Virus record (IMG/VR): IMGVR_UViG_3300035126_000394
Span: 1 to 37,700 of that record
DNA from: a virus
DNA: 37,700 nucleotides
Reading direction: 5' to 3' (one strand)
A program made the translations under genes and the position numbers. The notes beneath the pieces were generated by a model, which saw only the letters and a program-made list of their open reading frames with translations, was not told where the DNA came from and ran no database searches. Below are positions 395 to 35,839 of this stretch, in pieces. Numbering within the stretch: position 1 is the stretch's first letter; each line of letters begins with the position of its first letter.

Positions 395-646
395 TCATAG
401 CACCAACTCCTTCTGTACTGGATTTGCGTAATCACCTGGCACCACAGTAAAGACACCAGTCTTAAGACTTACTGCGAAGAAGTCCCCACGATTAACTACT
501 TCCCAGATAGTGGTGCTATTGAATAGCCGCTTGGAGGGAACCATACGCAGGTACAGTTCATCCTTGTATTGGAATGGTACGCTAGGTAATGCATAGGTAG
601 GTGCCTTCTTAGCTACTACCTTCTTAGGCTTACTGGTTGCGCTCAT
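395..646 (-). CDS. Small phage protein, 83 aa, unknown function
   Basis: The ATG has a GGAG ribosome-binding site eight bases upstream and lies inside the end of the preceding gene (17-base overlap), typical of a tight phage operon. The N-terminus is Lys/Ala-rich (SKPKKVVAKKAPTY), which could bind nucleic acid or simply be flexible. The rest reads as a small beta-rich domain (LYLRMVP, TIWEVVN, FFAVSLKTGVFTVVPG). No known family is recognised. The position next to genes of DNA metabolism suggests an early accessory protein, but this is inference only. Confidence 0.75.
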   Translation of the reverse strand: MSATSKPKKVVAKKAPTYALPSVPFQYKDELYLRMVPSKRLFNSTTIWEVVNRGDFFAVSLKTGVFTVVPGDYANPVQKELVL

Positions 647-1007
647 ATTCTTGCTCCTCGGCAGTAGTCATCATATCGGATTCATACCTGTACAGCATCG
701 CATCTGCTACTTCCTGTGCGCTACAGAGAGCAGGATTACCTTGCCACTTAGCATATGCTCTTTCCCTACGTTCAGAAGGATCATCCAGTCCTAGCTTCTG
801 TTCAATGCTTTGCTTCTCTGCTGCTGTATATGCAGGCGAGGTGATACCTTCCTCAGCTTTGAATGCTAGGAGTTTCAGCTGGGACGCTAGGTTATCGCTC
901 ATCTTCGCAGTAGCTTCCCTTGTATCAGTACGAAGCAATGCTACTAGGTAATGTATCTGTGGAAGTGAGAGAGCTATGCGGTATTTGGAATCTTTAAGTG
1001 ATGACAT
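630..1007 (-). CDS. Early-arm phage protein, 125 aa, unknown function
   Basis: The ATG is preceded by a GGAA ribosome-binding site. The protein is mostly charged and helical, with no membrane segment or signal peptide. The C-terminal third (ERRERAYAKW, then a run of acidic residues) is strongly charged. No catalytic motif or known family is recognised. It follows a 91-base gap containing a 9-bp hairpin and overlaps the next gene by 17 bases, so it heads a sub-block of small leftward genes and may be expressed differently from the genes upstream of the hairpin. Confidence 0.75.
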   Translation of the reverse strand: MSSLKDSKYRIALSLPQIHYLVALLRTDTREATAKMSDNLASQLKLLAFKAEEGITSPAYTAAEKQSIEQKLGLDDPSERRERAYAKWQGNPALCSAQEVADAMLYRYESDMMTTAEEQEYERNQ

Positions 1008-2729: not shown

Positions 2730-3025
2730 ACCGGCACATCCTTGGGCTTGATCACAGCAAGGATCACAAGATTGATATCCAGGGTATCCACCACTTGTTC
2801 ATATACCTTGATGGATACCTGCTTAACTACTGTGCGCTTAGGAGGATAGGAATATGTATCTCTTGCATACATGCCATCTGCTTGAAGGTTGAAACGCTTC
2901 CTATCATCGAAGTCAAGAGCCTCATATTCCTGTGCGGATATGAACTCTCTACCATCCTGGCAGTATGCACCTTGTTCATCGCTGCATACTGTCTTTGTTT
3001 CTTCGATTGTGATTGTGTAGCTCAT
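2726..3025 (-). CDS. Phage protein of unknown function, 99 aa
   Basis: The ATG has an AAGGA site at a longish distance. The protein has a short N-terminal beta region (SYTITIEETKTV), two cysteines (positions 14 and 22), an acidic EYEALDFDDRKRF helix, and a C-terminal strand-rich part (QVVDTLDINLVILAVI) ending in KPKDVPV. No family is recognised. It sits between the RecB-like nuclease and the Sak4-like ATPase and overlaps the latter by four bases, so it may be an accessory factor of the recombination set. Confidence 0.7.
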   Translation of the reverse strand: MSYTITIEETKTVCSDEQGAYCQDGREFISAQEYEALDFDDRKRFNLQADGMYARDTYSYPPKRTVVKQVSIKVYEQVVDTLDINLVILAVIKPKDVPV

Positions 3026-3031
3026 GATATA

Positions 3032-3958
3032 TTATTCCTTTGAGAGTTGCGCTTGAATGAGTTCTTGAATTGTCACCTTCACTTGGTACTTCCTCTTGTT
3101 ATCCTTCAGGATTTTCTTAGCTCCACCAAAGGTGAGTGGTTCAGCTAAGGTTTCTGTGGCAAGAGTACATAGATTCATATACTCACACTCACGATAAAAG
3201 CTATAACATGATTCACCATGCATAGGATACACACCGATACCTTCATACAGCTGTAGCTTCTGCTTCTCAAGCAGTAGTTCCTGTATCCACAGTGCGCGCT
3301 GGAGGTAGCTCTTATGGAATGGAAGCTGCTCATACTCCATCTCTTTTGTTTTATACACCAGATAGAGGACTTTGTACGCACTAAGGGAAGGAAAGAGATG
3401 ATCTAATACAACAGAATATCCAATTGCTTGGGAGGAATTCTTGTATGTGGCAGCATTCAGCTTGGCAGAGGTGGTCTTTACTTCCAGTACCATTACCTCA
3501 CCAGTCACTCTGTGAGAGAGCACAGCATCTACGAATCCTCTGAACAGGAAGCGATCACCTAGATCTACAGTGAAGCCAAGTTCTACTGCTGGCTTGCCTT
3601 CATGGATTACCAGCTCATAATCTTTCAGGTATCCATTCTCCCTGTGAAGGAATGCAAACTTCTGTACTGCTGCTATAGCTAGCCAGAAACTCTTTACCTG
3701 TTTCGTGTTGAATGCAAGCAGGTGCGGTTCCCACATGAGGAAGCAGTTCCAGATGATCTGTTTCAGTGGCTTACCTTCAAATACTTCCTGTATCCCTAGT
3801 CCTACTAGGTGACCGAATGCGAAGGTGATGGAGGAATCATAGTCCTCCTCTTGGTCTGGCCTAGTACCTAGCTTATATAGCTGGTACTTGCGTGGGCAGC
3901 TATGGAGAGTGAGGTTGGAGGAATAGGATAGCTGTTTCACCCTGAGATCAATGGGCAT
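3032..3958 (-). CDS. PD-(D/E)XK nuclease, Cas4/RecB type with Cys4 cluster, 308 aa
   Basis: All core motifs of the Cas4/RecB-like exonuclease family are visible: H50, the GFVDAV motif with D144, VLEVKTTS with E159 and K161, and QAIGY with Q177 and Y181. Cysteines at C21 (SCPRKYQ) and C251, C258, C264 near the C-terminus match the split four-Cys pattern that holds a 4Fe-4S cluster in Cas4 and AddB. The family degrades or resects DNA ends, giving single strands for a recombinase such as the downstream Sak4-like protein. The ATG at 3958 is preferred over the GTG one codon upstream because GGAGG lies seven bases before it. The start overlaps the upstream stop (TGATG). Confidence 0.85.
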   Translation of the reverse strand: MPIDLRVKQLSYSSNLTLHSCPRKYQLYKLGTRPDQEEDYDSSITFAFGHLVGLGIQEVFEGKPLKQIIWNCFLMWEPHLLAFNTKQVKSFWLAIAAVQKFAFLHRENGYLKDYELVIHEGKPAVELGFTVDLGDRFLFRGFVDAVLSHRVTGEVMVLEVKTTSAKLNAATYKNSSQAIGYSVVLDHLFPSLSAYKVLYLVYKTKEMEYEQLPFHKSYLQRALWIQELLLEKQKLQLYEGIGVYPMHGESCYSFYRECEYMNLCTLATETLAEPLTFGGAKKILKDNKRKYQVKVTIQELIQAQLSKE

Positions 3959-11459: not shown

Positions 11460-11891
11460 TTACAATATACCTGCAATTGAGAGAGAACTACTCTTTGCTG
11501 CCTTACTTGCTGCTTTTGCTTCTACTACATCCATGTAATGATAGGTATCACCTACATATCCTAGCCTTCTCATTACATACCTAAATTCTGGGCCATGTAC
11601 TTGTGGTGCATTTGGGAAGATACGGAACTGTACTATATGAGCTAACTCATGTACTAGTAGCTCTGTAAATACTTCCATACCTGCGGTAAGTACAAAGGTA
11701 AGGTTATACTCTACTCTGCTATCTACCTTAGATTTCCAGGCATACCCTGCTACTCTTGATTTCCTGGTGGTAACCATGATTCTTGGTGCTGTACCAATGG
11801 AAGGATACATATCCACAATGAGCGACCAATAAGCAGCTACTAGTTTATGTATCTCTATCTCTGCTTGCATTGCTGTCATTGCTTGGTTCAT
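11460..11891 (-). CDS. SprT-like zinc metalloprotein, 143 aa
   Basis: The motif VHELAHIVQF (HELAH at residues 81-85) followed by QVHGPEFRYVMRRLG with H99 is the signature of the SprT/SPRTN domain, where the two histidines of HExxH and a later histidine bind zinc. Cellular SPRTN proteins degrade proteins crosslinked to DNA. Phage SprT-like proteins are common but little studied. The C-terminal zinc ribbon of longer SprT proteins is absent. It is the first gene after the main leftward promoter, with an AAAGGA ribosome-binding site and a leader of roughly 80 bases, so it should be made early. The family is clear; protease activity is inferred. Confidence 0.85.
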   Translation of the reverse strand: MNQAMTAMQAEIEIHKLVAAYWSLIVDMYPSIGTAPRIMVTTRKSRVAGYAWKSKVDSRVEYNLTFVLTAGMEVFTELLVHELAHIVQFRIFPNAPQVHGPEFRYVMRRLGYVGDTYHYMDVVEAKAASKAAKSSSLSIAGIL

Positions 11892-18412: not shown

Positions 18413-19177
18413 ATGAGTATCTCACAAAGTATTATGGCAATGTTCGGTGGTTCTGCTGCCCCTGTAGCTGGCGCTCCTGCTCCTGCTGGCCAACCTACTC
18501 CTCCAGGAAATATCCCAGCTGGTGCAGCTGCTACTGGCGCAGCTCCCAATGGTACAGCTCCCAATGGAACTATTCCTCCTGGTGCTCCTGCCCCTGACCC
18601 AAATGCGACCCCGCTCGATGCATTTAGCGAGCTGTGGAAAAATGATCCCAATGCAGCAGCGCCTGGGAATACCAGTGTATTTGGTGAAGTTGATCCCAAG
18701 AAGTTCATGGAAGCTGCTGGTAAGGTAGATTTCGCAAAGTCCATTACTCCTGCTACTTTGCAAGCAATCCAAGCAGGCGGAGAGGATGGCATCAAAGCCT
18801 TCGCAGCAGCAATGAACTCAGTAGCACAAAACGTATATGCTCAGGCATCTTTCGCTTCCACCAAGATTACTGAGCAAGCAATGCAAAAGCAACGGGAAGC
18901 GTTCATAGCAGAAATCCCCCAGCATATTCGCTCCTCTACTGCTTCAGAAAGTCTCAGGGCTGAAAACCCAATCTTTTCTCACCCTGCAGCTGCTCCTATT
19001 CTTGGTGCAGTACAAAACCAACTAGCAGTTAAATTTCCACAAGCCTCTGCTGCTGAACTTACAGCAATGGCTAAGACCTATCTGGAACAATTTGCTACTG
19101 GTATCTCCCCGCCCAAAGCTCCTGCGGCAGATTCCAAGAAAGCAAATGAAACTGACTGGTCGAACTTTCTGAACTAA
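18413..19177 (+). CDS. Capsid scaffolding protein, 254 aa
   Basis: The ATG at 18413 has an AAAGGA site; the longer frame starts in the preceding gene. Residues about 10-60 are Ala/Pro/Gly-rich with two short PNGT repeats, clearly disordered. The rest is helical (KFMEAAGKVDFAKSI, KAFAAAMNSVAQNVYAQ, LTAMAKTYLEQF). A soluble, charged helical protein of this size directly between portal and capsid genes is the typical scaffold that guides procapsid assembly and then leaves. No protease domain is visible. Confidence 0.75.
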   Translation: MSISQSIMAMFGGSAAPVAGAPAPAGQPTPPGNIPAGAAATGAAPNGTAPNGTIPPGAPAPDPNATPLDAFSELWKNDPNAAAPGNTSVFGEVDPKKFMEAAGKVDFAKSITPATLQAIQAGGEDGIKAFAAAMNSVAQNVYAQASFASTKITEQAMQKQREAFIAEIPQHIRSSTASESLRAENPIFSHPAAAPILGAVQNQLAVKFPQASAAELTAMAKTYLEQFATGISPPKAPAADSKKANETDWSNFLN

Positions 19178-19200
19178 CCTTTTCTTTCTAGGAGAATCAT

Positions 19201-19599
19201 ATGTTCGTACGTGCTTGTGTCAAACAGAGCGGACTTGAGCGTCCTGCTCGTACTGGGGATGGCATCATGGCCAATGTCCTCATCAATAGCTACGCGACTG
19301 ATGCCATCTTGACAGTTACGATTCCGCAAGTAATGGGTGGCGTGCTGCAAGTTACTGGCCTCACTGCTGGCCGTGTTTTCACCACTCCTACTGCTGCTGA
19401 TCTGCTGGCTGCAATGGCGGATATGGATATCGGAGATACCTACATGTTCAAGGTCTCTGTTACTACCGCGTTCGCAATCACGTGGGGTGCTGGCGCTGGT
19501 GTTACTCTCGCCGGTCGCGCTACCACTCCTGCCAGTTCCAGTACTGACATTGTGATCGAGAAACTTTCGGCCACCACTGTCAAGTGGACTGTCCTCTAA
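19201..19599 (+). CDS. Probable capsid decoration protein, 132 aa
   Basis: A strong AGGAG site precedes the ATG. The protein is beta-rich and full of Thr, Ala, Gly and Val (DAILTVTIPQVMGGVLQVTG, FAITWGAGAGVTLAG), with an ending (DIVIEKLSATTVKWTVL) like those of head-surface or fibre-like domains. It lies between scaffold and major capsid protein, the usual place of a head decoration gene, and shares the capsid gene's GC-richer codon usage. The role is inferred. Confidence 0.65.
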   Translation: MFVRACVKQSGLERPARTGDGIMANVLINSYATDAILTVTIPQVMGGVLQVTGLTAGRVFTTPTAADLLAAMADMDIGDTYMFKVSVTTAFAITWGAGAGVTLAGRATTPASSSTDIVIEKLSATTVKWTVL

Positions 19600-19626
19600 T
19601 CCCTCACATAAGAAAGGAAAACTGAC

Positions 19627-20838
19627 ATGGCCGTCTTTACTGGTATGTTCAACACGAGTAACTTCACTACCGATCTGGCGAAGAAATCTTTCGCAGGTAT
19701 GATTACTCGCCTGATGCCGAATGGTTCTGCTCCGCTGTTCGGCCTTACTTCCATGCTCTCCAGCGAAACTGCTGTTGCTACCGAGCATGGTTTCTTCACC
19801 AAGACCATGGTATTCCCTGAAGTTCAACTGAATGGTGCTATCGGTGATGGCACTACGCAGTTGTTCACGGTGGATTCGAATACCAACATGTTGCCAGGTA
19901 TGATCCTCCGTGTGAATACCACGGGTGAGAATGTTCTGGTGAATTCCATCCCCTCCAGCACTACCATTCACGTTACTCGTGGCGTTGGTACGGTTTCTGC
20001 GGCTGCAATCGCAGATGACGTGAAGTTGTTCCAAGTTGGTAACGCATTCGAGGAAGGTTCTGATCGCCCTGGCGCTCTGAACGTAACTCCGGTGCGTATT
20101 ACCAATCTGACGCAGATCTTCCGTGATGCTTGGGCACTCACTGATTCGGCTCGTGCTACGCAGGTCATCGCTGGCAACGATACGGTTAGCGAGAACAAGC
20201 AGGATTGCGCTGCGTTCCACGCAACCAGCATCGAGAAGTCGCTGTTCTTCGGGCAGAAGTCGCAGGGTACTCGCAATGGTAAGCCGTTCCGTACCATGGA
20301 TGGTTTCATCTCCATTGTTAGCAACCTGACGTACTACCCGTCCAGCTATGCTGCTGTCAACGTTACTACCGCAGGTGGCACCACCACCTATACCCAACTG
20401 GAAGCTGCACTTGATCCTGTTTTCAATCAGGCAACTGATCCGAAAGTAGCGAACGAGCGTATCCTCTTCGTTGGCGGTACTGCCAAACTGGTGCTGAATA
20501 ACATCGGCCGCCTGAATGGTACTTACCAGCTGGTAGATGGTCAGACTTCGTGGGGCCTGCAATTCTCCACCTTCAAGACTGCTCGCGGTACTTTCCGCGT
20601 GATTGAGCATCCTCTGCTTAATACCAACAGCACCTGGAGCAAGATGGCAATGGCTGTGGATCTGTCCACTTTCAATGTCGCATACCTCGGAGATCGCAAG
20701 ACGAAGAACGAGGAATACGGTGCTGATGAAGGACAAGATGCTGTCGGCGGTTCGCTCACTACGGAACTGACCTGCCTCATCAAGAATCCTCCTGCCAACG
20801 CCATCATCTACAACCTCACTGCTGGCGCAGCTGGCTAA
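19627..20838 (+). CDS. Major capsid protein, SU10/DUF5309 type, 403 aa
   Basis: The central EEGSDRPGALNVTPVRITNL and DAWALTDSARAT segments, with SLFFGQKSQGT, match the SU10-type major capsid family (HK97 fold). About 400 residues is normal. It assembles as hexamers and pentamers into the head shell around the scaffold. A GAAAGGAAAA stretch upstream serves as ribosome-binding site. Codon use is clearly GC-richer than in most flanking genes (many CTG, ACC, AAC, CGT), as expected for the most abundant virion protein, and a terminator follows within 25 bases. Confidence 0.92.
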   Translation: MAVFTGMFNTSNFTTDLAKKSFAGMITRLMPNGSAPLFGLTSMLSSETAVATEHGFFTKTMVFPEVQLNGAIGDGTTQLFTVDSNTNMLPGMILRVNTTGENVLVNSIPSSTTIHVTRGVGTVSAAAIADDVKLFQVGNAFEEGSDRPGALNVTPVRITNLTQIFRDAWALTDSARATQVIAGNDTVSENKQDCAAFHATSIEKSLFFGQKSQGTRNGKPFRTMDGFISIVSNLTYYPSSYAAVNVTTAGGTTTYTQLEAALDPVFNQATDPKVANERILFVGGTAKLVLNNIGRLNGTYQLVDGQTSWGLQFSTFKTARGTFRVIEHPLLNTNSTWSKMAMAVDLSTFNVAYLGDRKTKNEEYGADEGQDAVGGSLTTELTCLIKNPPANAIIYNLTAGAAG

Positions 20839-26403: not shown

Positions 26404-26880
26404 ATGAGTACTCCTCCCAGTGATTACTTCTCAATCGAGGAAACAGTTGTTTCTCAGAGGGCAGAAGAACTAGGAATCCAAAATGTACCTACCGAATTGG
26501 TGGCTAGAACTATCATCCAGACTGCTAGGTACATGGATAATATCAGACGATTTCTTGGCTTTCCTATTCATGTTAATTCTTGGTATCGCTCTCCTGATCT
26601 GTGTATTGCGATAGGATCGAAAGCAACTAGCCAGCATACTAAAGGGGAAGCGGTAGATTGGACTTGCCCTGGATATGGTACCCCTGAAAAGATAGCATCT
26701 ATACTGGCTAAGAACATAAAAGGATTGCATATAGATCAGTTGATTCTGGAGCATGGTTGGATACACACCAGCTTTGCTATAAGCCCTCCTAGGGTAAGTA
26801 GGTATGAAGTATTATCATTGCTACATTCTGGTGGATACTCCACTGGCCTTACAGACATACATGGAAAGGCAATTACGTGA
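26404..26880 (+). CDS. Endolysin, peptidase M15 type, 158 aa
   Basis: The zinc site of M15/VanY-like peptidases is visible: H78 and D85 in SQHTKGEAVDW, and H121 in GWIHTSF, with E116 of QLILEHGW as the catalytic acid. The SWYRSPDLCIAIGSKA segment precedes it, as in this family. The enzyme cuts peptide bridges in peptidoglycan. No signal peptide is seen, so export probably depends on the holin. The ATG lacks a strong ribosome-binding site and its stop overlaps the next gene's GTG, so translation is coupled. Some M15 domains are virion-borne, but this lysis context favours an endolysin. Confidence 0.9.
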   Translation: MSTPPSDYFSIEETVVSQRAEELGIQNVPTELVARTIIQTARYMDNIRRFLGFPIHVNSWYRSPDLCIAIGSKATSQHTKGEAVDWTCPGYGTPEKIASILAKNIKGLHIDQLILEHGWIHTSFAISPPRVSRYEVLSLLHSGGYSTGLTDIHGKAIT

Positions 26881-27161
26881 ACTCTCCAATCAAGATGCCC
26901 TGCGCTAATCCAGAAGTTTCATGCAGTCATGCAGAGGAAGCAGCCGGACTTGCTGTGAAGCAGATGTTTGCTATCCTGGGTGTGAATATAGATGAACCCA
27001 AGGAAGTGGAAGAATTCAGGGAGAACCTTCGCTTTGGTGCATCCATGCGGAGGGCTTCAGACAGAGGATTGCTAGGAGTAGTGGGACTAATATTTGCTGG
27101 AATGGCTGCTGCTACTTGGGTAGGTATTACCGCCATCATATCCAAAGCTGGAGGACACTAA
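26877..27161 (+). CDS. One-TM lysis-cassette protein, 94 aa, GTG start
   Basis: The GTG overlaps the endolysin stop (GTGA) and has a GGAAAGG site. The first half is soluble and acidic (SCSHAEEAAGLAVKQMF, then DEPKEVEEFRENLRFGAS). One hydrophobic segment (GVVGLIFAGMAAATWVGITA, about residues 66-86) spans the membrane. This resembles the DUF6127-like group, often next to holins. The role may be pinholin, antiholin or holin regulator; none is proved. An ATG six codons downstream is an alternative start. Confidence 0.7.
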   Translation: MNSPIKMPCANPEVSCSHAEEAAGLAVKQMFAILGVNIDEPKEVEEFRENLRFGASMRRASDRGLLGVVGLIFAGMAAATWVGITAIISKAGGH

Positions 27162-27162
27162 G

Positions 27163-27582
27163 ATGCTAGGTTGGGATGTAGTACTTGCTGCAGGAATGCA
27201 GATAGTAAACAAGCTGATTCCTGATCCTGCTGCCAGAGCTGCCGCAGAACTTGAGATCTTCAAGATGAAGCAGAACGGAGAGTTTCGTGTGATCGAAGCT
27301 CAGTTGCAGGAAATGCAGGAAGTAACTAAGAGAGCTTCCGCTGACATGGCATCTGATTCATGGCTCTCAAAGAACATTCGGCCATTGATTATGGTGTATT
27401 TCCTTACCCTCATTTCTCTCATGGCATTCGGACTGGTGCAGCGCATAGATGATGCTTTCCTTTCAATGGTAAGGAGCTTTACAGAATTCGGTTTGATGTT
27501 CTATTTTGGTGGAAGAACCCTTGAGAAGGTGACTTCTATTATTGCAGATAAAATTCCTACTTCCTCTAAAGGAGACAAGTAA
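27163..27582 (+). CDS. Holin, 3TM family of the gene-transfer-agent type, 139 aa
   Basis: The sequence matches the pattern of the GTA_holin_3TM family: IPDPAARAAAELEI near residue 20, a charged helical linker (KQNGEFRVIEAQLQEMQEV), then DSWLSKNIRPLIMVYFLTLI and a second hydrophobic segment (FLSMVRSFTEFGLMFYFGGR). These hydrophobic regions and the N-terminal amphipathic helix could give two or three membrane passes. It would permeabilise the inner membrane and release the M15 endolysin. A GGAGG site precedes the ATG, and its stop overlaps the next ATG (TAATG). Confidence 0.8.
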   Translation: MLGWDVVLAAGMQIVNKLIPDPAARAAAELEIFKMKQNGEFRVIEAQLQEMQEVTKRASADMASDSWLSKNIRPLIMVYFLTLISLMAFGLVQRIDDAFLSMVRSFTEFGLMFYFGGRTLEKVTSIIADKIPTSSKGDK

Positions 27583-28787
27583 TGACTACTCCGCTTTCCA
27601 GTAATATTGATTCTCTTACTTCTCTCCTTGGTCTTTTTACTGGGAAGAAAACCTCAGTAACTACCTCTGGTGGCAGCAGCTCTGAACAAACCATTGTGTC
27701 TGAGGAAGGAATCAAGAATCTGATTCGTTCCCTCATGGAAGGTACCTCTGGGCTTGCTGCTGTATCCAGTGGACAGAAAGCACCTGGTATGTATAACAGT
27801 ACTACCAGGCAGCTGATGACCAATGATCTGCTGGCACGAGTGGGCGGGCAGGCAGCAGAGCGCAGCGCGGTGAAGGTTACTAACAAGGATCCAATCATCC
27901 AAACTACTAAGGTGACTGCTCCTATTGATTCCAAGACTGGGCTCTTGGCTGGAGCTGCTTTGCTGCTTGGGAGTAAGAAAGCTAGGAAAGGATTGCTGGA
28001 TGGCCTTGACCTAGATGATCTGCTTTCCATGGGCATTCCTCTGGAGTCTGGTAATGCATCTTCTGGTAATGCAGCAGCAGGAGCACAGAACAATGATCCT
28101 TGGAACTCCAGAGGCTCTTTTCCTACTGCATTTGATAATTCAATTGATAACAATGCTATACCTAGCTTTGTTTCAAACCTTAATTTCAGTCCTATGAGTA
28201 GTGATATGTCTGCTGCTGCATTCACTCCTTTTGCCTCAGTGCTTCCTGCAGAACAACTGCCTCCGGCTCCTGTTCTTGAGCCAATGCCGGAACCTGTAGT
28301 TACTCCTACTCCTGAGCCAGTGGTAACTCCTACTCCTGAGCCAGTGGTAACTCCTCCTACAGTAGAGGCGGTTCCAGATGTGGTGCAACCTCCTGCTCCG
28401 GTAACTCCCCCAGTAGTAGCGGCACCTCCTGCTCCTCCTTCCTTGGATCAGTTCATTAAGCCTAGTAAGAGCAATGGATCGTATCCTGGAGGTTCTAGTG
28501 GATATGAGGCTGACGTAGCCAGGCTTATCACTGCTTTGAATACATACAACTCTACCTATGGGGCTACCTACAAAGTAGTTAGTCCCAATGGGTACAGTGT
28601 TACAGGAATTACTGGCGGTGCTGTTCCTGTTCCTGTTCCTACTTCTACGGGAGGAGGTACATTTACTTTTCTCGGATACAATCCAACAGTAGATAACTTG
28701 TTCCAAGGGAACCCAGGGGCTCCTGGAAGTAGCGGAGGCAACCTTTCTGTAGACAACACTTTCGGCGGTTTCGGCCCAATATTCTAA
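27582..28787 (+). CDS. Internal virion protein, Pro-rich, 401 aa (gp14-like position)
   Basis: An AGGAG site precedes the ATG. The N-terminal 130 residues are mixed, with one hydrophobic stretch (TGLLAGAALLLGSKKARKG). The middle, about residues 225-290, is Pro/Val/Glu-rich with an exact 8-residue repeat TPTPEPVV encoded by a 24-bp tandem duplication. The C-terminus is Gly/Asn/Thr-rich and probably beta. Its place right before two large proteins matches T7 gp14, the smallest of the internal core proteins ejected into the host, and a hydrophobic segment would suit membrane crossing. No homology is claimed. Confidence 0.6.
   Translation: MTTPLSSNIDSLTSLLGLFTGKKTSVTTSGGSSSEQTIVSEEGIKNLIRSLMEGTSGLAAVSSGQKAPGMYNSTTRQLMTNDLLARVGGQAAERSAVKVTNKDPIIQTTKVTAPIDSKTGLLAGAALLLGSKKARKGLLDGLDLDDLLSMGIPLESGNASSGNAAAGAQNNDPWNSRGSFPTAFDNSIDNNAIPSFVSNLNFSPMSSDMSAAAFTPFASVLPAEQLPPAPVLEPMPEPVVTPTPEPVVTPTPEPVVTPPTVEAVPDVVQPPAPVTPPVVAAPPAPPSLDQFIKPSKSNGSYPGGSSGYEADVARLITALNTYNSTYGATYKVVSPNGYSVTGITGGAVPVPVPTSTGGGTFTFLGYNPTVDNLFQGNPGAPGSSGGNLSVDNTFGGFGPIF
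28302..28349 (+). repeat. 24-bp tandem duplication coding TPTPEPVV
   Basis: Two identical 24-base copies lie head to tail, with a third degenerate copy upstream (EPMPEPVV) and a partial copy downstream. The reading frame is kept. It probably arises by slippage or unequal recombination and lengthens a Pro-rich linker. Confidence 0.85.
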
Positions 28788-28825: not shown

Positions 28826-30529
28826 ATGGCAGATAGCACCAGTCTCGTAGACCAACTGGAACAGCAGCAAGCTGAGTTCCGTAAGAATGCCCAAGATATG
28901 CAGCAGCTATTCTTTGGCGTGGGGCAGAATGCTGCTCAGAAAGCTGCACTGGAAGCGAAGTCAGGTGAGAATGTAAACGGGAGATTTGAAACTCCTGAAT
29001 CCTTTGCAGTAAGGGCACAGGCTGATCTGGAAGCCCAGCTAGAGAAGAAGAGTTTTGCTGCCACTCTGGATCATGCAGCACTCTCCTATGAGCTGGCAAT
29101 GCAGACCAGAGATACTGTGCGTACGCAGATGACACAAGCTGCTAAGATCCAAGAGGATAAATCTGTTTCTCTCTTCGAAGATCCTGCCTCTGCTATCATC
29201 AACGCATTCACCCTGCCCTGGGATATGCAGGAACTGGAAGGTACGAATACCAGATTGGCTCTTCTAACTGATGCCAAGGCTAAGCTGGATACCACAGTTC
29301 AGCAACACGCACAGAGTACAGATGCATTGAAGCAATCACTCACCGCTGCTACAAATCTGGAACTAGTGACTGCTCTAGGAACTAGGCAGAAGATCCGTGA
29401 GATTGATGCCACCAATGCAGCTCTCATGAGTGATGCGCAGGGTATTGAAGCAGTAGCTCGCATGGATGCAATGGGTACTAACGCAGCAGTACGGGTACTG
29501 GAAGTACAGAATGCTGAAGAATCTAGGAAGCTCACCAGAGAAAGACTTGACGCTGAAAAAGAGATGAGAGATGAGCGCCTGAAGAAGATGAAAGAGAATG
29601 AAGCTGCACTTACTGCTGGAATTACAGCTGTGAATGATGGCCGTCGCAGAGATGGCTTACCTCCTCTAGATAGAACTCAGATTCTATTCGGACTTAATCA
29701 GCCTAAAGGATCTAAGGCTGGAGAACAGTTTGGTAACTGGCTTGATCGCGGTGTAATGCTATCCAGCGGTACAGTACCCTTTGATGGAGAGAATGCATTG
29801 GAGCGAGCTGCCTACCGGAACTCAGTAGGTATGCGGCCTAAGAATAGCAGGCAGGAATCTCTGATGCAGCTAGATATTGATGCTGTAGCTGCTGCCAGTA
29901 AGAACAGCAAGGATAAGAATGTCATTGCCACTGAAGCCGATAAGATGGTCAGGGCTAAGATGAATGACTGGAAGTCTAACATAGTTCCTGGGGATACTTC
30001 CAATCCTTTCCAGCCTCCCTCATATGATGCCATTATAGATATGGGGCTATCTGGTATGAAGGCATATCCAGTACTTGCTACTCTGCTTACAGATGCGAAT
30101 AAGAATAATCCGATTGACCAGCAACAGGTGTTTGATACATTGCTTGCAGCAGTAATCAAGCGTGATATCACTGGGAATGATGCAGCTGTTCTCATGGCTA
30201 CCATGTACGGGAAAACCATGCTGGCTGTGAATCTGCAATCTGATGCACAGAAGCTTACTGGCGAACCGCTTAAACAGTGGAATGCAAAGATAGATACAGT
30301 AGGTAATGCGCTAGGAGGTAAGTACACAGTTGCACGTTTCCTGCCTATGGGTAAGGCAATTGCAAATCTTACTGACCCTGTAATAGTACAGAACCTTATC
30401 CAGCGAGCTGTAGTCATGCAGTTAGGGGCTGCAATTAACTGGAATAGTGAGTACCCTGATACTCCAAATGGAGGTGGTTTCTATCCTCCCCTTTTCAAAT
30501 CTGGTGTAGTCGCGCCAAAATTGAGGTAA
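28826..30529 (+). CDS. Internal virion protein, coiled-coil, 567 aa (gp15-like position)
   Basis: An AGGAG site precedes the ATG. The first 260 residues are highly helical and charged (LVDQLEQQQAEFRKNAQDM, ESRKLTRERLDAEKEMRDER, then LKKMKENEAALTAG) with clear heptad-like spacing. The later half is globular and helical. The C-terminus is Gly/Pro-rich (SEYPDTPNGGGFYPP). There is no signal peptide. By position and composition it corresponds to T7 gp15, which forms a tube with gp14 and gp16 in the cell envelope during DNA ejection. Unproved by sequence. Confidence 0.65.
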   Translation: MADSTSLVDQLEQQQAEFRKNAQDMQQLFFGVGQNAAQKAALEAKSGENVNGRFETPESFAVRAQADLEAQLEKKSFAATLDHAALSYELAMQTRDTVRTQMTQAAKIQEDKSVSLFEDPASAIINAFTLPWDMQELEGTNTRLALLTDAKAKLDTTVQQHAQSTDALKQSLTAATNLELVTALGTRQKIREIDATNAALMSDAQGIEAVARMDAMGTNAAVRVLEVQNAEESRKLTRERLDAEKEMRDERLKKMKENEAALTAGITAVNDGRRRDGLPPLDRTQILFGLNQPKGSKAGEQFGNWLDRGVMLSSGTVPFDGENALERAAYRNSVGMRPKNSRQESLMQLDIDAVAAASKNSKDKNVIATEADKMVRAKMNDWKSNIVPGDTSNPFQPPSYDAIIDMGLSGMKAYPVLATLLTDANKNNPIDQQQVFDTLLAAVIKRDITGNDAAVLMATMYGKTMLAVNLQSDAQKLTGEPLKQWNAKIDTVGNALGGKYTVARFLPMGKAIANLTDPVIVQNLIQRAVVMQLGAAINWNSEYPDTPNGGGFYPPLFKSGVVAPKLR

Positions 30530-30535
30530 TATATA

Positions 30536-33500
30536 ATGAGTGATGAATACAGCAACATCCCTTCCCATCTTATCGCTGCAAGCAATCATACCATCCTGAA
30601 TGGTGGGAATACTTCTATCTTCGAGGATGCAGCAGATATCGCTACCAAGTTCATACCTACAGCCATAGCATCTGGTGTTAATGAAATCTATAACATCGTT
30701 CCTACTGTGGCGAATTACTTTGGTGCAAAGATGGAGACTTCTGATCTTCGCAAGCGCTTGGTGGAACTGGATAATGACTATGCCAGATACTACGATGATC
30801 ACAAGTTGGGAGTTGATACTGCTGGATTCATCCTTGGTATGTTTGCTCCTGGAATGGGGGGAGTTAAGGTATTAAATGCAGGCCAGCTGATGCTGAGGGA
30901 AAGTGCAATCGGTGTTAATATGGGCCGCGGTATGGGAGTTCTTGCTCCCAATCGTGATCTACATCTAGCGGATGCAGTATCTGCTATTCGCAGTAGCGGT
31001 AATGTATTCTCCCTAGGTGAGGCGAATACTGTAAAGGCACTTGCTGCTGGTTTTGGCCAAGCTGTATATGAGGGAGCTGCTTGGGAAGTGATGGTTGCAG
31101 CTACCATGAATAACTCTCCTATCCTAGATGATATGAGCGTGAAGGATCTGTTCTGGAACGGTGTGCATGGAGCTGGTGTATTCGGTGCTCTTGGCGGTGT
31201 ATTGCAAGGGGTAGGTACTGGCTGGAGAGTTGCTGCTGCTGGTAGGGTTGCTGAGAAAGAATTGGCTCCCTATGGTATTACTGCAATGCCAGGCCCAGCT
31301 CAGAGTCCTTCTGATAAGATACTCTTTAAGGCTGAGCAGCTTCAGGCACTTCCTCCTTTGCCTGAAGGTGGTCTGGCAATCCGTGCTGGAGTAATGAGAG
31401 GAAAGACTCAGGACTTGCTTACCAGAGAGATACAAGAAGAATTTGGTAAGCTCACTGGTGGCGATACTGCCATTGCCAAGGCTATGTTCGATCACTTTAA
31501 GACCACAAGACTAGAGGAGAATGTAGGTAATCTGCTGGATACTATCTCCCTCGGTCGAGTAAATAAGGTGACTGCCGCTGACTCAGCATATACTCAGGCG
31601 ATGAAGCGAGTGATAGCAGATCCTCTGGGGGTACATTCTGCTGAGGACATGGCAATACTGAACAATACCACTGTGAGCTGGATTAAGCTGCATGGGGATC
31701 AGATGGGTACTATCTTCCATGATCGCCCGAAGGTACTGAATCTGGCTGATAACCTAGCTCCAGGTGAACAGATCGTAGTTACTCCTGCAGGTGTGAAAGC
31801 AGGGAAGGCCACATATTCCTTCAGTAATAACCCGAATAGAGGATACAATATCCTTGGTGTGGATCACAGGACTACCGAAGCTAGGTACTTCTGGGCTGAG
31901 AAACTTCCTGCTTGGGTACAGGGGGAGGAAGTATCTGTTCACGCACTTGATCTACCTCTCCTTGAGAAAGCTGTGCGAGATGGTATCACTGGAGTAAAGG
32001 TGATTCCTGAGAGTGGTAAGATCGCTGAGGCTACCTCATACACCAGAGAGGAACTTGCCACATATCTGAAGGCACAGAAGAAAGATACCGCTACCCGCAT
32101 TGCCAAGAACAGTGAAGCAGTAATGTCCGCTGAAACTAAGGTGGATAAGCTGAAAAGTTACTTCGGCATTAACTTCAATGTGATTGAAGATCCAGTGGGA
32201 GGATACGCTGGATGGTTCATGCGGAAGGGTACTACCTACACTGATGACCTTGGTAATACTCATCCCATCAAAGCGGATGCCATTACCATTGAGAAGCAAT
32301 TTCTTGAAAGCAATTCCCTGAAGCGTATCATGAGTACCTTGAAACATGAGGAAGGTCATTCCATGTTCCAAGGTATCCTAGACTCCAAGGGAGTTGCTCT
32401 TGAGAACCTGGGACAGATATGGCCTTCCTTGATAGGGGAGCTGCAGAATCTATCTAGGGCACGTAGGCCAGAGCTGTGGAAATCCAAGGATAAGACACAG
32501 GAAGCCTATCGTAATAGCGCACATGAACTGTTCGCTGATGCTTTCGCTTGGGCATCTACTCACCCTGAAGTACTGGCTAAGAATCCAGCATTCAATGATT
32601 TCGCTGGGCATCTGGTACGTCCTGTTCCTCCTGAGATTCTTCAGGCTATTTCTACCAGAGCAACTAAGGCCACAACGGAAGAGATTGCTAAGATTGTAAA
32701 TGTGCATCCGGAAATACTGAATGACATTGAGCGCCCGATGGGATGGGATGCTCGCGCACTTGCTAGGCATGACTATGCTTCACGCGGGGTAGATGCAGGC
32801 ACTCGCCGATCCGAAGCCCTGCTGGATCCTCTGCTTGCTCCTAGCTATGCAAAGATGGTTTCCAAGACTCAGCGTACCATGATGGACGGTAATGAGCTGC
32901 AAGGACTTGCGGCAGTATCTCAGCGCGCCAAGCTACATGATGAGAGAGTACATAGGACTGCCACTGAATTAACAGGTGTTGAGTTCCCCAGGATTCCAGA
33001 CCAAGCAATTCTTACAGGGAATGCTGGCCCAGGTATTGCTTCCTTCACTGGTGGTGCCAATGGTACTCTCCAGCAGATCATGGAATTTGTAGGACAGCAA
33101 GTTAAGAATCTGAAAACCAAAGAAGTTGGAGAGATGTATGAGTTCATGGCTGCTCCGCTTCAGAAACTCTCCAATGATCTTGATGGAGCTATTGAGTTCT
33201 CAGTTCTAAATGAGAAGATGCGCTCGCTACCACAACGCTATGTGTGGGATGCAGAGAAGCAAGGATTAGCTTATCGCTTCTCCAGCGAGGAAGGATCTGC
33301 TGCTAGGGCCAGAGAAGTAGCTGAGCTTGCTCAAAGAGAAGTACCTGAGTTCGTAAGCGTGCAAAGTGCCAGTGCTGCTGAAGCAATTCAAGCGCATATG
33401 GAGAGAGCTGTTCGCTACTCACAGGCGAAGATCAAGATGCGTGCTGATGAAGGATACCAGCACAAGGTAGATCCTGATACCTTCTATCCTATTCCTAGGA

Positions 33501-35839
33501 ACTCAAAGGATACTCCTTACTTCGCATTTGTAATTGATGATAGCGCAACTGCTACAGGTCATAGCAGTATGATCTATGCTCCTACATCTAAGGATCTGGA
33601 AGTATTGATTCAGAAGATCCAATCTGATGCGGTAGCGAATAGCAAGCACCTGAAGGTACTCACCAAGGGAGATTCTGAGGCGTACTTCAAGTCTCAGGGT
33701 ACTTATGAATTCGAACGCTCCCTGAATGATAACTACATCAATACTGAGATGCGCCGGATGGGTGTGAGTGCTTCGCTGCATATGCCACTTACTGATCCCA
33801 AGAAGATTGTGGATAACCTGCTTCAGTGGCATACTGATCGCTCGAATAGTCTGATACGGGATGCGGCCGCACATAACTACTCCCGCCAATTCGATGCCAT
33901 TATGACTCAGGCTGAGACTGGATTGCTGGCAGCTAAGAGCAAGCAAGGGTATGTATCTTCCCTCGCCTATGCTGAGAACGCAGTTAACAATCCTGCTTCC
34001 AATCTGATTAAGCTGGCGCTAGATGTGCAGAAGCGAGAAGAGTACCCAATCTGGAACTCAGTGAATAAGATGCTGGATCACCAAGTATCTAAGTACTGGG
34101 GCAAAGTATCTGAGGCAATGGATAAGGTTACAACTCCTGAGCATCTGGATGCTGTAGGTGAGGCACTTAAGAAAACTGGGTATGCTGGAGTATTGCCTGA
34201 TGCAGAACTGTATCGGGCTATGAATGCTGGTACTCCTAGCGGTACTCTTACCAAGTTTGTAGGTAGAGCTAATGCACTCATCAGTACATTCGCACTTCGC
34301 TTAGATCCTCTGAATGCAATCAATAATACCATTGGGGGCGCAGTACTTCTTGGGAGTGAAACCCAAAGCATACTGAAAGCTATACGTACTGGGAATGCTG
34401 AGGCTGCTGGAGAGCTGGCACAGCTGATGAAGATTGCAGTTCCTGGTTCCAAGGATGCAATTGATTCCCCTACCAAGTTGATCGCTAATGCAATCAGTAG
34501 GTACCATAACAATCCTGAGCTTCTCGCATACTATAAAAAGAATGGATTCATCTCCTCAATTACCCAGCAGTACAATCAGGTGATTGATGATATTGGCCGC
34601 TCCCTTGCAGGTGATGCAGATGTAGGTACAGCTTTGGCTAGGATGAATAAGTATGCAGAGGTAGGTGAGAAGCTCACTGGTAATAGGATGGCTGAGGAAT
34701 TCAATCGTTTCATTGCAGCAGATGTGATGAAGCAGATCACTGATGTAGCTGTGAAGCATGGCATCATTGATGAAAGAACTTCTCTGGCTTATATCAATAC
34801 CTTTGTGAATAGAACCCAAGGTAACTATGTTGCTAGCCAGCGGCCGCTCATGTTCCAAGGCCCAGTTGGTCAAGCCATTGGACTCTTCCAAACATACCAG
34901 TTCAATCTGATACAGCAACTACTGCGTCATGTAGGAGAAGGTCAGGCTAAGACTGCTACCATTATGATGGGACTGCAAGGTTCTATCTATGGTATGAATG
35001 GATTGCCTGCATTCAATGCAATCAATACCCATCTGATTGGTAATGCCCCAGGTAATACTACCCACACTGATGCAATCCAAGCTACCTACAGTGCAGCAGG
35101 TAAGGTGGCAGGAGATTGGCTGATGTATGGAGGACTCTCAAATGCAATGGGACTATTCCATCCTGATCTGAAGGTGAATATGTATTCCCGCGGCGATGTG
35201 AATCCACGGAATATTACCATCGTTCCTACTGATCCTGCATCTGTACCAATTGTGCAGGCAGCTACTCGCTTGTATCAGCAGGTAGCAGAAGGCATGGGTA
35301 AGGTAGCAGCTGGCGCTCCTGTATGGCAGACATTCCTGAGAGGGCTGGAACAGAACGGAGTTTCAAGACCTCTTGCTGGCTTGGCTCAGGTACTTGAGGC
35401 TGGTACTGTAGGAGATGGTAAGGTAACTGCCCTGAATCAGAAAGGGAACATTACCATGTCCCATGATCTGCTGAGTCTTGCTTCTCTTACCAGACTTGCT
35501 GGTGGTAAGCCACTGGATGAAGCACTGGTGAATGATGCCATGTTCAGAATCAATACCTATCAGGCGAAAGATGCGAAGCGCAGGGCTGAACTGGGAGAGA
35601 GCATTAAGATCTCTGTACTTGGAGGTAAGGAACTGAGTGAGGAACAGGTAACTGATTTCACAGCTAAGTACATTAAGAGCGGTGGAAAGCAGGAGAACTT
35701 TGCTCAGTTCATGGCTAAGCAATACCAGAATGTGAATACTTCCCAAGCTAACCAACTGAGAAGTCATCTATCCTCATCTTATGCTACACATCTACAGCGT
35801 ATTGGGGGTGGGTATGAATTGGAGGATCTATCCAAATGA
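30536..35839 (+). CDS. Giant internal virion protein with zincin-like domain, 1767 aa
   Basis: This is the largest gene in the window and sits where T7 gp16 (1318 aa) would be. A metalloprotease signature is clear: HEEGH at residues 604-608 in a long helix (LKRIMSTLKHEEGHSMF), and a downstream AHELFADAFAW helix (H663, E664) about 60 residues later, as in gluzincin-type sites where the later Glu is the third ligand. Nothing like the transglycosylase domain of T7 gp16 was seen. The rest is Ala-rich, helical and soluble with several coiled-coil-like stretches. A GAGG site precedes the ATG. It may cut peptidoglycan or host envelope proteins during DNA entry, or be a non-catalytic fold. Confidence 0.75.
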   Translation: MSDEYSNIPSHLIAASNHTILNGGNTSIFEDAADIATKFIPTAIASGVNEIYNIVPTVANYFGAKMETSDLRKRLVELDNDYARYYDDHKLGVDTAGFILGMFAPGMGGVKVLNAGQLMLRESAIGVNMGRGMGVLAPNRDLHLADAVSAIRSSGNVFSLGEANTVKALAAGFGQAVYEGAAWEVMVAATMNNSPILDDMSVKDLFWNGVHGAGVFGALGGVLQGVGTGWRVAAAGRVAEKELAPYGITAMPGPAQSPSDKILFKAEQLQALPPLPEGGLAIRAGVMRGKTQDLLTREIQEEFGKLTGGDTAIAKAMFDHFKTTRLEENVGNLLDTISLGRVNKVTAADSAYTQAMKRVIADPLGVHSAEDMAILNNTTVSWIKLHGDQMGTIFHDRPKVLNLADNLAPGEQIVVTPAGVKAGKATYSFSNNPNRGYNILGVDHRTTEARYFWAEKLPAWVQGEEVSVHALDLPLLEKAVRDGITGVKVIPESGKIAEATSYTREELATYLKAQKKDTATRIAKNSEAVMSAETKVDKLKSYFGINFNVIEDPVGGYAGWFMRKGTTYTDDLGNTHPIKADAITIEKQFLESNSLKRIMSTLKHEEGHSMFQGILDSKGVALENLGQIWPSLIGELQNLSRARRPELWKSKDKTQEAYRNSAHELFADAFAWASTHPEVLAKNPAFNDFAGHLVRPVPPEILQAISTRATKATTEEIAKIVNVHPEILNDIERPMGWDARALARHDYASRGVDAGTRRSEALLDPLLAPSYAKMVSKTQRTMMDGNELQGLAAVSQRAKLHDERVHRTATELTGVEFPRIPDQAILTGNAGPGIASFTGGANGTLQQIMEFVGQQVKNLKTKEVGEMYEFMAAPLQKLSNDLDGAIEFSVLNEKMRSLPQRYVWDAEKQGLAYRFSSEEGSAARAREVAELAQREVPEFVSVQSASAAEAIQAHMERAVRYSQAKIKMRADEGYQHKVDPDTFYPIPRNSKDTPYFAFVIDDSATATGHSSMIYAPTSKDLEVLIQKIQSDAVANSKHLKVLTKGDSEAYFKSQGTYEFERSLNDNYINTEMRRMGVSASLHMPLTDPKKIVDNLLQWHTDRSNSLIRDAAAHNYSRQFDAIMTQAETGLLAAKSKQGYVSSLAYAENAVNNPASNLIKLALDVQKREEYPIWNSVNKMLDHQVSKYWGKVSEAMDKVTTPEHLDAVGEALKKTGYAGVLPDAELYRAMNAGTPSGTLTKFVGRANALISTFALRLDPLNAINNTIGGAVLLGSETQSILKAIRTGNAEAAGELAQLMKIAVPGSKDAIDSPTKLIANAISRYHNNPELLAYYKKNGFISSITQQYNQVIDDIGRSLAGDADVGTALARMNKYAEVGEKLTGNRMAEEFNRFIAADVMKQITDVAVKHGIIDERTSLAYINTFVNRTQGNYVASQRPLMFQGPVGQAIGLFQTYQFNLIQQLLRHVGEGQAKTATIMMGLQGSIYGMNGLPAFNAINTHLIGNAPGNTTHTDAIQATYSAAGKVAGDWLMYGGLSNAMGLFHPDLKVNMYSRGDVNPRNITIVPTDPASVPIVQAATRLYQQVAEGMGKVAAGAPVWQTFLRGLEQNGVSRPLAGLAQVLEAGTVGDGKVTALNQKGNITMSHDLLSLASLTRLAGGKPLDEALVNDAMFRINTYQAKDAKRRAELGESIKISVLGGKELSEEQVTDFTAKYIKSGGKQENFAQFMAKQYQNVNTSQANQLRSHLSSSYATHLQRIGGGYELEDLSK

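What the first reader, a model, noticed from the sequence alone, without database searches (positions are those of the whole stretch)
32345..32560. Zincin-like protease site embedded in a 1767-aa ejection protein
HEEGH (604-608) followed about 55 residues later by AHELFADA has the form of a gluzincin active site. It sits in the protein that by position corresponds to the T7 gp16 group, whose known enzyme is a transglycosylase. A metallopeptidase instead of a glycosidase would be a different way to breach the envelope.
Basis: partly seen in the sequence, partly recalled or inferred. Interest (0 to 1): 0.6.

Follow-up and report, generated by a model that had tools for sequence, protein, structure and literature searches.

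The report
Protein-cutting domain in phage injection protein
A giant protein that this short-tailed phage probably injects into its host carries a removable zinc-dependent protein-cutting domain; related phages keep it, have lost it or have mutated it dead, so it is probably an optional tool used on the host cell or on the phage's own proteins and not the means of breaching the cell wall.

Summary
The 1767-aa ORF at 30536-35839 has HEEGH at 604-608 and HELFADAF with E664, 56 residues on. Ten sequences that carry the full intact domain, including one from Aeromonas phage P5 (about 24% identical), keep H604, E605, G607, H608, Y658, E664 and D668. Two AlphaFold models give a zincin-like layout. 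Nearly all their best VIA-align matches are HExxH zincins, led by the lethal-factor catalytic domain (Z 4.8-5.1, modest). So it is probably a gluzincin-type zinc peptidase domain. The domain (about residues 527-713) is an optional cassette in a family of 1600-1850-aa ejection proteins: missing from 52 of 65 relatives in the tree, probably deleted inside the intact clade (L042), and catalytically dead in one clade. No transglycosylase was detected in relatives with or without it, so it does not replace one visibly. Zincin domains in phage-injected proteins are a known kind (polyvalent-protein MPTases, Iyer 2017; phage N4 virion RNA polymerase), but this set shows no detectable sequence relation to N4's and passes no Pfam cut-off. 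Best reading: an accessory virion protease acting after ejection on a host protein, or on the ejected complex. Activity, metal, substrate and compartment are untested.

The parts
30536..35839 (+). 1767-aa protein, third of three large late genes in the T7 gp14-gp15-gp16 position; presumed ejection protein
   Evidence: same three-gene order in Aeromonas phage P5 and PaP2; C-terminus matches phrog_16165
32123..32674 (+). zincin-like metallopeptidase domain, residues 530-713 (cassette limits about 527-713)
   Evidence: alignments A1, A5, A7; model mf6d3661336db, pLDDT 79.9, pTM 0.73; VIA-align matches to zincins; missing in relatives with flanks intact
32345..32359 (+). HEEGH 604-608: predicted zinc ligands H604 and H608, general base E605
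   Evidence: invariant in 10 of 10 intact sequences except that position 606 is K in P5; H604 and E605 lost in L018, L027 and L028
32507..32509 (+). Y658, conserved Tyr 6 residues before E664, candidate transition-state stabiliser
   Evidence: 10 of 10 intact sequences, Arg in the dead ones; the role is inferred from gluzincins
32525..32539 (+). E664-x-x-x-D668: predicted third zinc ligand and second-shell carboxylate (gluzincin ExxxD)
   Evidence: invariant in 10 of 10 intact sequences; in the dead ones E664 is kept and D668 is Ser
31736..32080 (+). domain B (residues about 401-515), directly upstream of the zincin; downstream of it in phage P5
   Evidence: blastp P5 618-725 to L007 455-561, E 8e-5, against zincin P5 452-586 to window 598-728, E 1e-5
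30818..30874 (+). hydrophobic segment, residues 95-113
   Evidence: hydropathy; also present at this place in relatives
31148..31204 (+). hydrophobic glycine-rich segment, residues 205-223
   Evidence: hydropathy; also present at this place in relatives
34772..35692 (+). C-terminal conserved region (residues 1413-1719), hallmark of the protein family
   Evidence: alignment A4 and scan with 183 relatives
28826..30529 (+). 567-aa neighbour in the T7 gp15 position
   Evidence: gene order only; no family match of note
27582..28787 (+). 401-aa neighbour in the T7 gp14 position
   Evidence: gene order only; no family match

Best explanation
Residues about 527-713 are a self-contained gluzincin-type zinc metallopeptidase domain (H604, H608 and E664 bind zinc, E605 activates water, Y658 and D668 assist), carried as an optional cassette in the largest ejection protein of a podophage. 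It is packaged with the protein, leaves the virion with the DNA, and most likely cuts a protein substrate in the infected cell (a host protein, or less likely the ejected complex itself). It gives an advantage only on some hosts and so is repeatedly lost or inactivated. Shown by computation: motif, conservation, zincin-like predicted fold, cassette behaviour, dead copies, low dN/dS. Inferred: ejection, zinc, proteolysis, substrate, compartment.
For: Catalytic residues invariant in 10 intact sequences down to about 24% identity. Two models with the zincin layout; VIA-align rows dominated by HExxH zincins: lethal-factor catalytic domain Z 5.1, rmsd 4.4, 129 aligned; selecase, Pro-Pro endopeptidases, Ste24, SprT, ArdC. 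Cassette absent in 52 of 65 tree rows, with both flanks alignable in close relatives; at least 5 presence/absence changes forced by starred branches, 0 of 500 shuffles as low. L042 lacks it inside the intact clade; one dead clade loses H604, E605, Y658 and D668 together. In P5 the zincin lies on the other side of domain B. Window against L001, zincin omega 0.13 by NG86. Published precedent for zincin domains in phage-delivered proteins (PMC5512222).
Against: Foldseek alone gave no match at E below 0.001, and Z near 5 is modest by the tool's own guide. No profile match to a known peptidase family passes a cut-off. Dead copies stay as alike as intact ones (55%), so the domain may also have a non-catalytic role. 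Ejection is inferred from gene position.
Confidence: 0.55

Rival explanations
1. Self-processing protease: the domain cuts the ejection protein itself, or its neighbours, in the virion or after ejection, to release domains or free the complex.
For: Proposed for polyvalent-protein MPTases; the P1 DdrB protein is cut before packaging (PMC5512222). The domain sits in the middle of a 1767-aa chain between conserved parts.
Against: Most relatives keep the flanking parts without any zincin, so cleavage is not needed for the protein to work. The N4 virion RNA polymerase with its zincin domain is packaged uncut. P5 has the domain on the other side of domain B.
Confidence: 0.2
2. Envelope-breaching peptidoglycan peptidase used in place of the T7 transglycosylase.
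For: Position in the T7 gp16-like gene; no transglycosylase detected in the protein.
Against: No transglycosylase in relatives that lack the zincin either, so no replacement is visible. Absence from most of the family and a dead clade. Structural neighbours are protein endopeptidases. No feature seen here points to peptidoglycan as substrate.
Confidence: 0.07
3. Mainly a structural or binding module with little or no catalysis, as the dead copies suggest.
For: L018, L027 and L028 keep the whole domain without H604 and E605, at 55% identity (L018 against L027), like the rest of the protein.
Against: In ten others seven active-site positions are kept while most of the domain drifts, which is the signature of catalysis or at least metal binding.
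Confidence: 0.12

Closest known systems
Zincin-like MPTase domains of polyvalent proteins (Iyer et al. 2017, PMC5512222)
   Same: HExxH plus a Glu on a later helix, lethal-factor-like fold, embedded in very large phage-delivered proteins, variable position and presence
   Different: No Pfam match even at E 10 to a polyvalent MPTase model; the host protein shows no other recognised polyvalent domain; belongs to a PaP2-p25-like ejection protein family; dead and deleted versions documented here
C1 domain of phage N4 virion RNA polymerase (residues 2124-2375, PMC12633501)
   Same: HExxH domain inside a giant ejected podophage protein, followed by over 1000 residues
   Different: No sequence or profile relation found (hhalign probability 0.6%); N4 motif HELVHA...NEFMAW against HEEGH...Y-x5-E-x-x-x-D; no polymerase here
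Catalytic domain of anthrax lethal factor (family M34, ATLF)
   Same: Best structural neighbour (Z 5.1, rmsd 4.4, 129 aligned); conserved Tyr before the third-ligand Glu (from general knowledge)
   Different: Sequence match only E 0.03 in one member, below any cut-off; phage origin; no delivery domains
T7 gp16
   Same: Third large gene of an ejection-protein trio; hydrophobic segments
   Different: No PHROGs match to it, no transglycosylase domain, 450 residues longer, carries a zincin
Aeromonas phage P5 protein UNI71185.1 (P5_0008)
   Same: Homologue over N- and C-terminal parts with an intact HEKGH...Y-x5-E-x-x-x-D domain
   Different: Zincin precedes domain B instead of following it; annotated hypothetical

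Membership tests
Gluzincin-type zinc metallopeptidases | HExxH with a third-ligand Glu on a later helix | tested here: met
   HEEGH in helix 66-89 and E664 at the start of helix 133-146 of the model; invariant in 10 sequences
Gluzincin-type zinc metallopeptidases | Zincin fold (helix, sheet, active-site helix, Glu helix) | tested here: inconclusive
   Predicted layout fits and VIA-align rows are mostly zincins, Z up to 5.1, but Foldseek has no match below 0.001 and geometry was not measured
Gluzincin-type zinc metallopeptidases | Zinc binding and peptidase activity | not testable with these tools
   needs the purified domain
MPTase domains of polyvalent proteins (Iyer 2017) | Sequence membership in a described clade or the Pfam MPTase-PolyVal model | tested here: inconclusive
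   No Pfam match at E up to 10; the paper's 12 clade alignments were not at hand
MPTase domains of polyvalent proteins (Iyer 2017) | Lies in a large protein delivered by the phage | tested here: inconclusive
   1767 aa and ejection-gene position; delivery not shown
N4 vRNAP MPTase clade | Profile similarity to N4-type domains | tested here: not met
   hhalign of 9 against 8 sequences, probability 0.6%
M34 / ATLF (lethal-factor family) | Match to the ATLF model above cut-off | tested here: not met
   one member only, E 0.03-0.05
SprT-like | Match to PF10263 above its cut-off | tested here: not met
   window domain 13.3 bits against cut-off 25.6; 5 of 10 members match weakly, best E 0.0033
T7 gp16 transglycosylase ejection proteins | Lytic transglycosylase domain | tested here: not met
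   Pfam scan of the whole protein at E up to 1
Peptidoglycan peptidases | Cleavage of peptidoglycan cross-links or stem peptides | not testable with these tools
   no sequence feature points to it; needs an assay on sacculi

The most novel reading that the evidence does not exclude
A separate lineage of virion-borne proteases, unrelated in sequence to the N4 type, that moves as a cassette in and out of one family of podophage ejection proteins and cuts a specific host protein at the moment of infection (for example a defence factor), with hosts that lack the target explaining the deletions and dead copies.
Probability: 0.3. Interest if true: 0.75.

Novelty: new variant of a known kind. Interest (0 to 1): 0.42.

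Why it matters
What phage ejection proteins do beyond forming the DNA conduit is a long-standing question. Here close relatives with an intact, a dead and a missing peptidase form a natural experiment: if the domain is an injected protease with a host target, comparing such phages on one host could show that target and why it is optional.

Tried and rejected
Transglycosylase or lysozyme in this protein, in the other large structural proteins scanned or in relatives: none detected. Close link to the N4 vRNAP zincin domain or to the rest of N4 vRNAP: none. Family membership in ATLF or SprT by sequence: below cut-offs. Direct sequence search of PDB chains: only chance matches. S-CBS3 lysozyme as a relative: E 1, no HExxH, chance. 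Zincin outside this protein family: no such locus recognised in viral contigs and none in genome contigs with two patterns; a genome-contig scan with the C-terminus found one intact copy on a contig binned as Coxiella (L118). Foldseek on the two-domain model: uninformative. Virion proteomics for relatives: not found in the papers read. Domain B gave no clear fold.

Full report
Observation. The ORF at 30536-35839 encodes 1767 residues. HEEGH is residues 604-608 and E664 lies in AHELFADAF, 56 residues after H608. HExxH is expected 0.048 times per shuffled copy of the protein, so conservation had to decide.

Conservation. Scans of viral contigs gave intact relatives L001, L003, L004, L007, L012, L076 and L104, Aeromonas phage P5 gave another, and a contig binned as Coxiella gave L118. 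L105 is cut at the contig end and shows only the second half. In the nine aligned first, 15 of 160 ungapped columns are invariant: L539, H604, E605, G607, H608, L615, S640, R644, W648, Y658, E664, A667, D668, F670, P677. The two zinc-ligand histidines, E605 and E664 all fall in that set (P about 5e-5). L118 keeps the active-site positions. Y658 and D668 are additions: a Tyr before the third ligand and an ExxxD pair are known from gluzincins (general knowledge).

Structure. AlphaFold on residues 389-735 with 6 sequences gave pLDDT 78.5, pTM 0.61; on 530-713 with 9 sequences pLDDT 79.9, pTM 0.73, with HEEGH inside helix 66-89 and E664 near the start of helix 133-146. Foldseek found nothing below E 0.001. 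VIA-align 2 on Foldseek's list ranks the lethal-factor catalytic domain first (Z 4.8, 121 aligned, rmsd 4.0; Z 5.1, 129 aligned, rmsd 4.4), followed by ArdC, selecase, Ste24, Pro-Pro endopeptidases, MATCAP, SprT and M1 aminopeptidases. Z values are modest; what persuades is that nearly all the rows covering this domain are zincins. Residue geometry could not be measured.

A cassette. The C-terminal 380 residues define a family with 183 matches in viral contigs, 80 fetched. In most, blastp aligns residues 1 to about 482 and about 713 to the end, with some 60 residues in place of the zincin. Junctions in the pairs L003/L042 and L076/L048 fall between the helix after domain B and a conserved EIAxxVNV segment. 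On a tree of the last 1010 residues (65 rows, quick method) the label needs at least 5 presence/absence changes on starred branches, with 0 of 500 shuffles as low. The dead copies are one clade (100) beside L007 inside the intact clade, and L042, which lacks the domain, lies beside L003 and L105. The tree is unrooted, P5 is a long branch, and L105 was labelled intact although its HExxH is not visible. Gain cannot be told from loss except where a loss is nested.

Dead copies. L018, L027 and L028 have RLEGH or KQEGH in place of HEEGH, Arg for Y658 and Ser for D668, but keep H608 and E664. Joint loss of H604 and of its presumed second-shell partner D668 fits the predicted site. L018 and L027 still share 55% identity in the domain, like the rest of the protein, so a second, non-catalytic role is possible.

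Selection and shuffling. Window and L001 differ in the zincin with dN 0.149 and dS 1.18 (NG86; dS near saturation), purifying. In P5 the zincin (452-586) precedes domain B (618-725) instead of following it, which suggests modular movement.

Is it an ejection protein? The gene is third of three large late genes after lysis genes, and the same trio stands in P5 and PaP2. Relatives are annotated as structural proteins and in one record as an ejection protein. No PHROGs match to T7 gp16 appeared. Hydrophobic segments at 95-113 and 205-223 are shared across the family. In T7 gp16 the stretch between the membrane regions lies in the cytoplasm (PMC8954989), so by analogy the zincin would too. This is inference.

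Mechanism. I judge most likely an accessory zinc endopeptidase that acts after ejection on a protein substrate. Self-processing is the main rival, weakened by zincin-free relatives with the same flanks and by N4 vRNAP, which is packaged uncut (PMC5512222). The envelope-breaching idea lacks support: no transglycosylase was detected in relatives with or without the zincin, so nothing appears to have been replaced, and an enzyme needed for entry would not be expected to be dead or deleted in close relatives.

Known context. Iyer and colleagues described zincin-like MPTases as the commonest domain of phage and plasmid polyvalent proteins, including N4 vRNAP, and linked them to the lethal-factor fold (PMC5512222); a 2025 preprint reports the HExxH motif in the C1 domain of N4 vRNAP (PMC12633501). 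The present set shows no profile relation to the N4 type and passes no Pfam cut-off. The searches of held papers turned up no report of a zincin in this ejection protein family. Hence a new variant of a known kind.

Noticed in passing
window 11460-11891 (-): SprT-like gene (PF10263, E 3.6e-9) with HELAH: a second, separate zincin in the same phage.
   Followed up: partly
window 26404-27582 (+): M15-type endolysin and a GTA-type holin lie directly before the three large late genes, a lysis cassette inside the structural block.
   Followed up: partly
L121, L122, L123 (PBMU01000004.1): A 119-kb contig binned as Rhodospirillaceae holds three copies of a relative 45,645 bases apart, as if a phage genome had been assembled as a concatemer.
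   Followed up: no
L118 (NVSS01000025.1): A 44-kb phage-sized contig binned as a Coxiella MAG carries an intact zincin version; the host assignment is unsure.
   Followed up: partly
window 31736-32080 (+): Domain B next to the zincin is conserved with or without the cassette, has no recognised fold, and is on the other side of the zincin in phage P5.
   Followed up: partly
L109 (phage N4): One zincin-free relative (L050) matches N4 vRNAP 2849-3097 at E 0.001 among about 60 queries; probably chance, not tested further.
   Followed up: no
window 19174-20736 (-): A 520-aa open frame runs antisense to the major capsid gene; probably a composition shadow.
   Followed up: no
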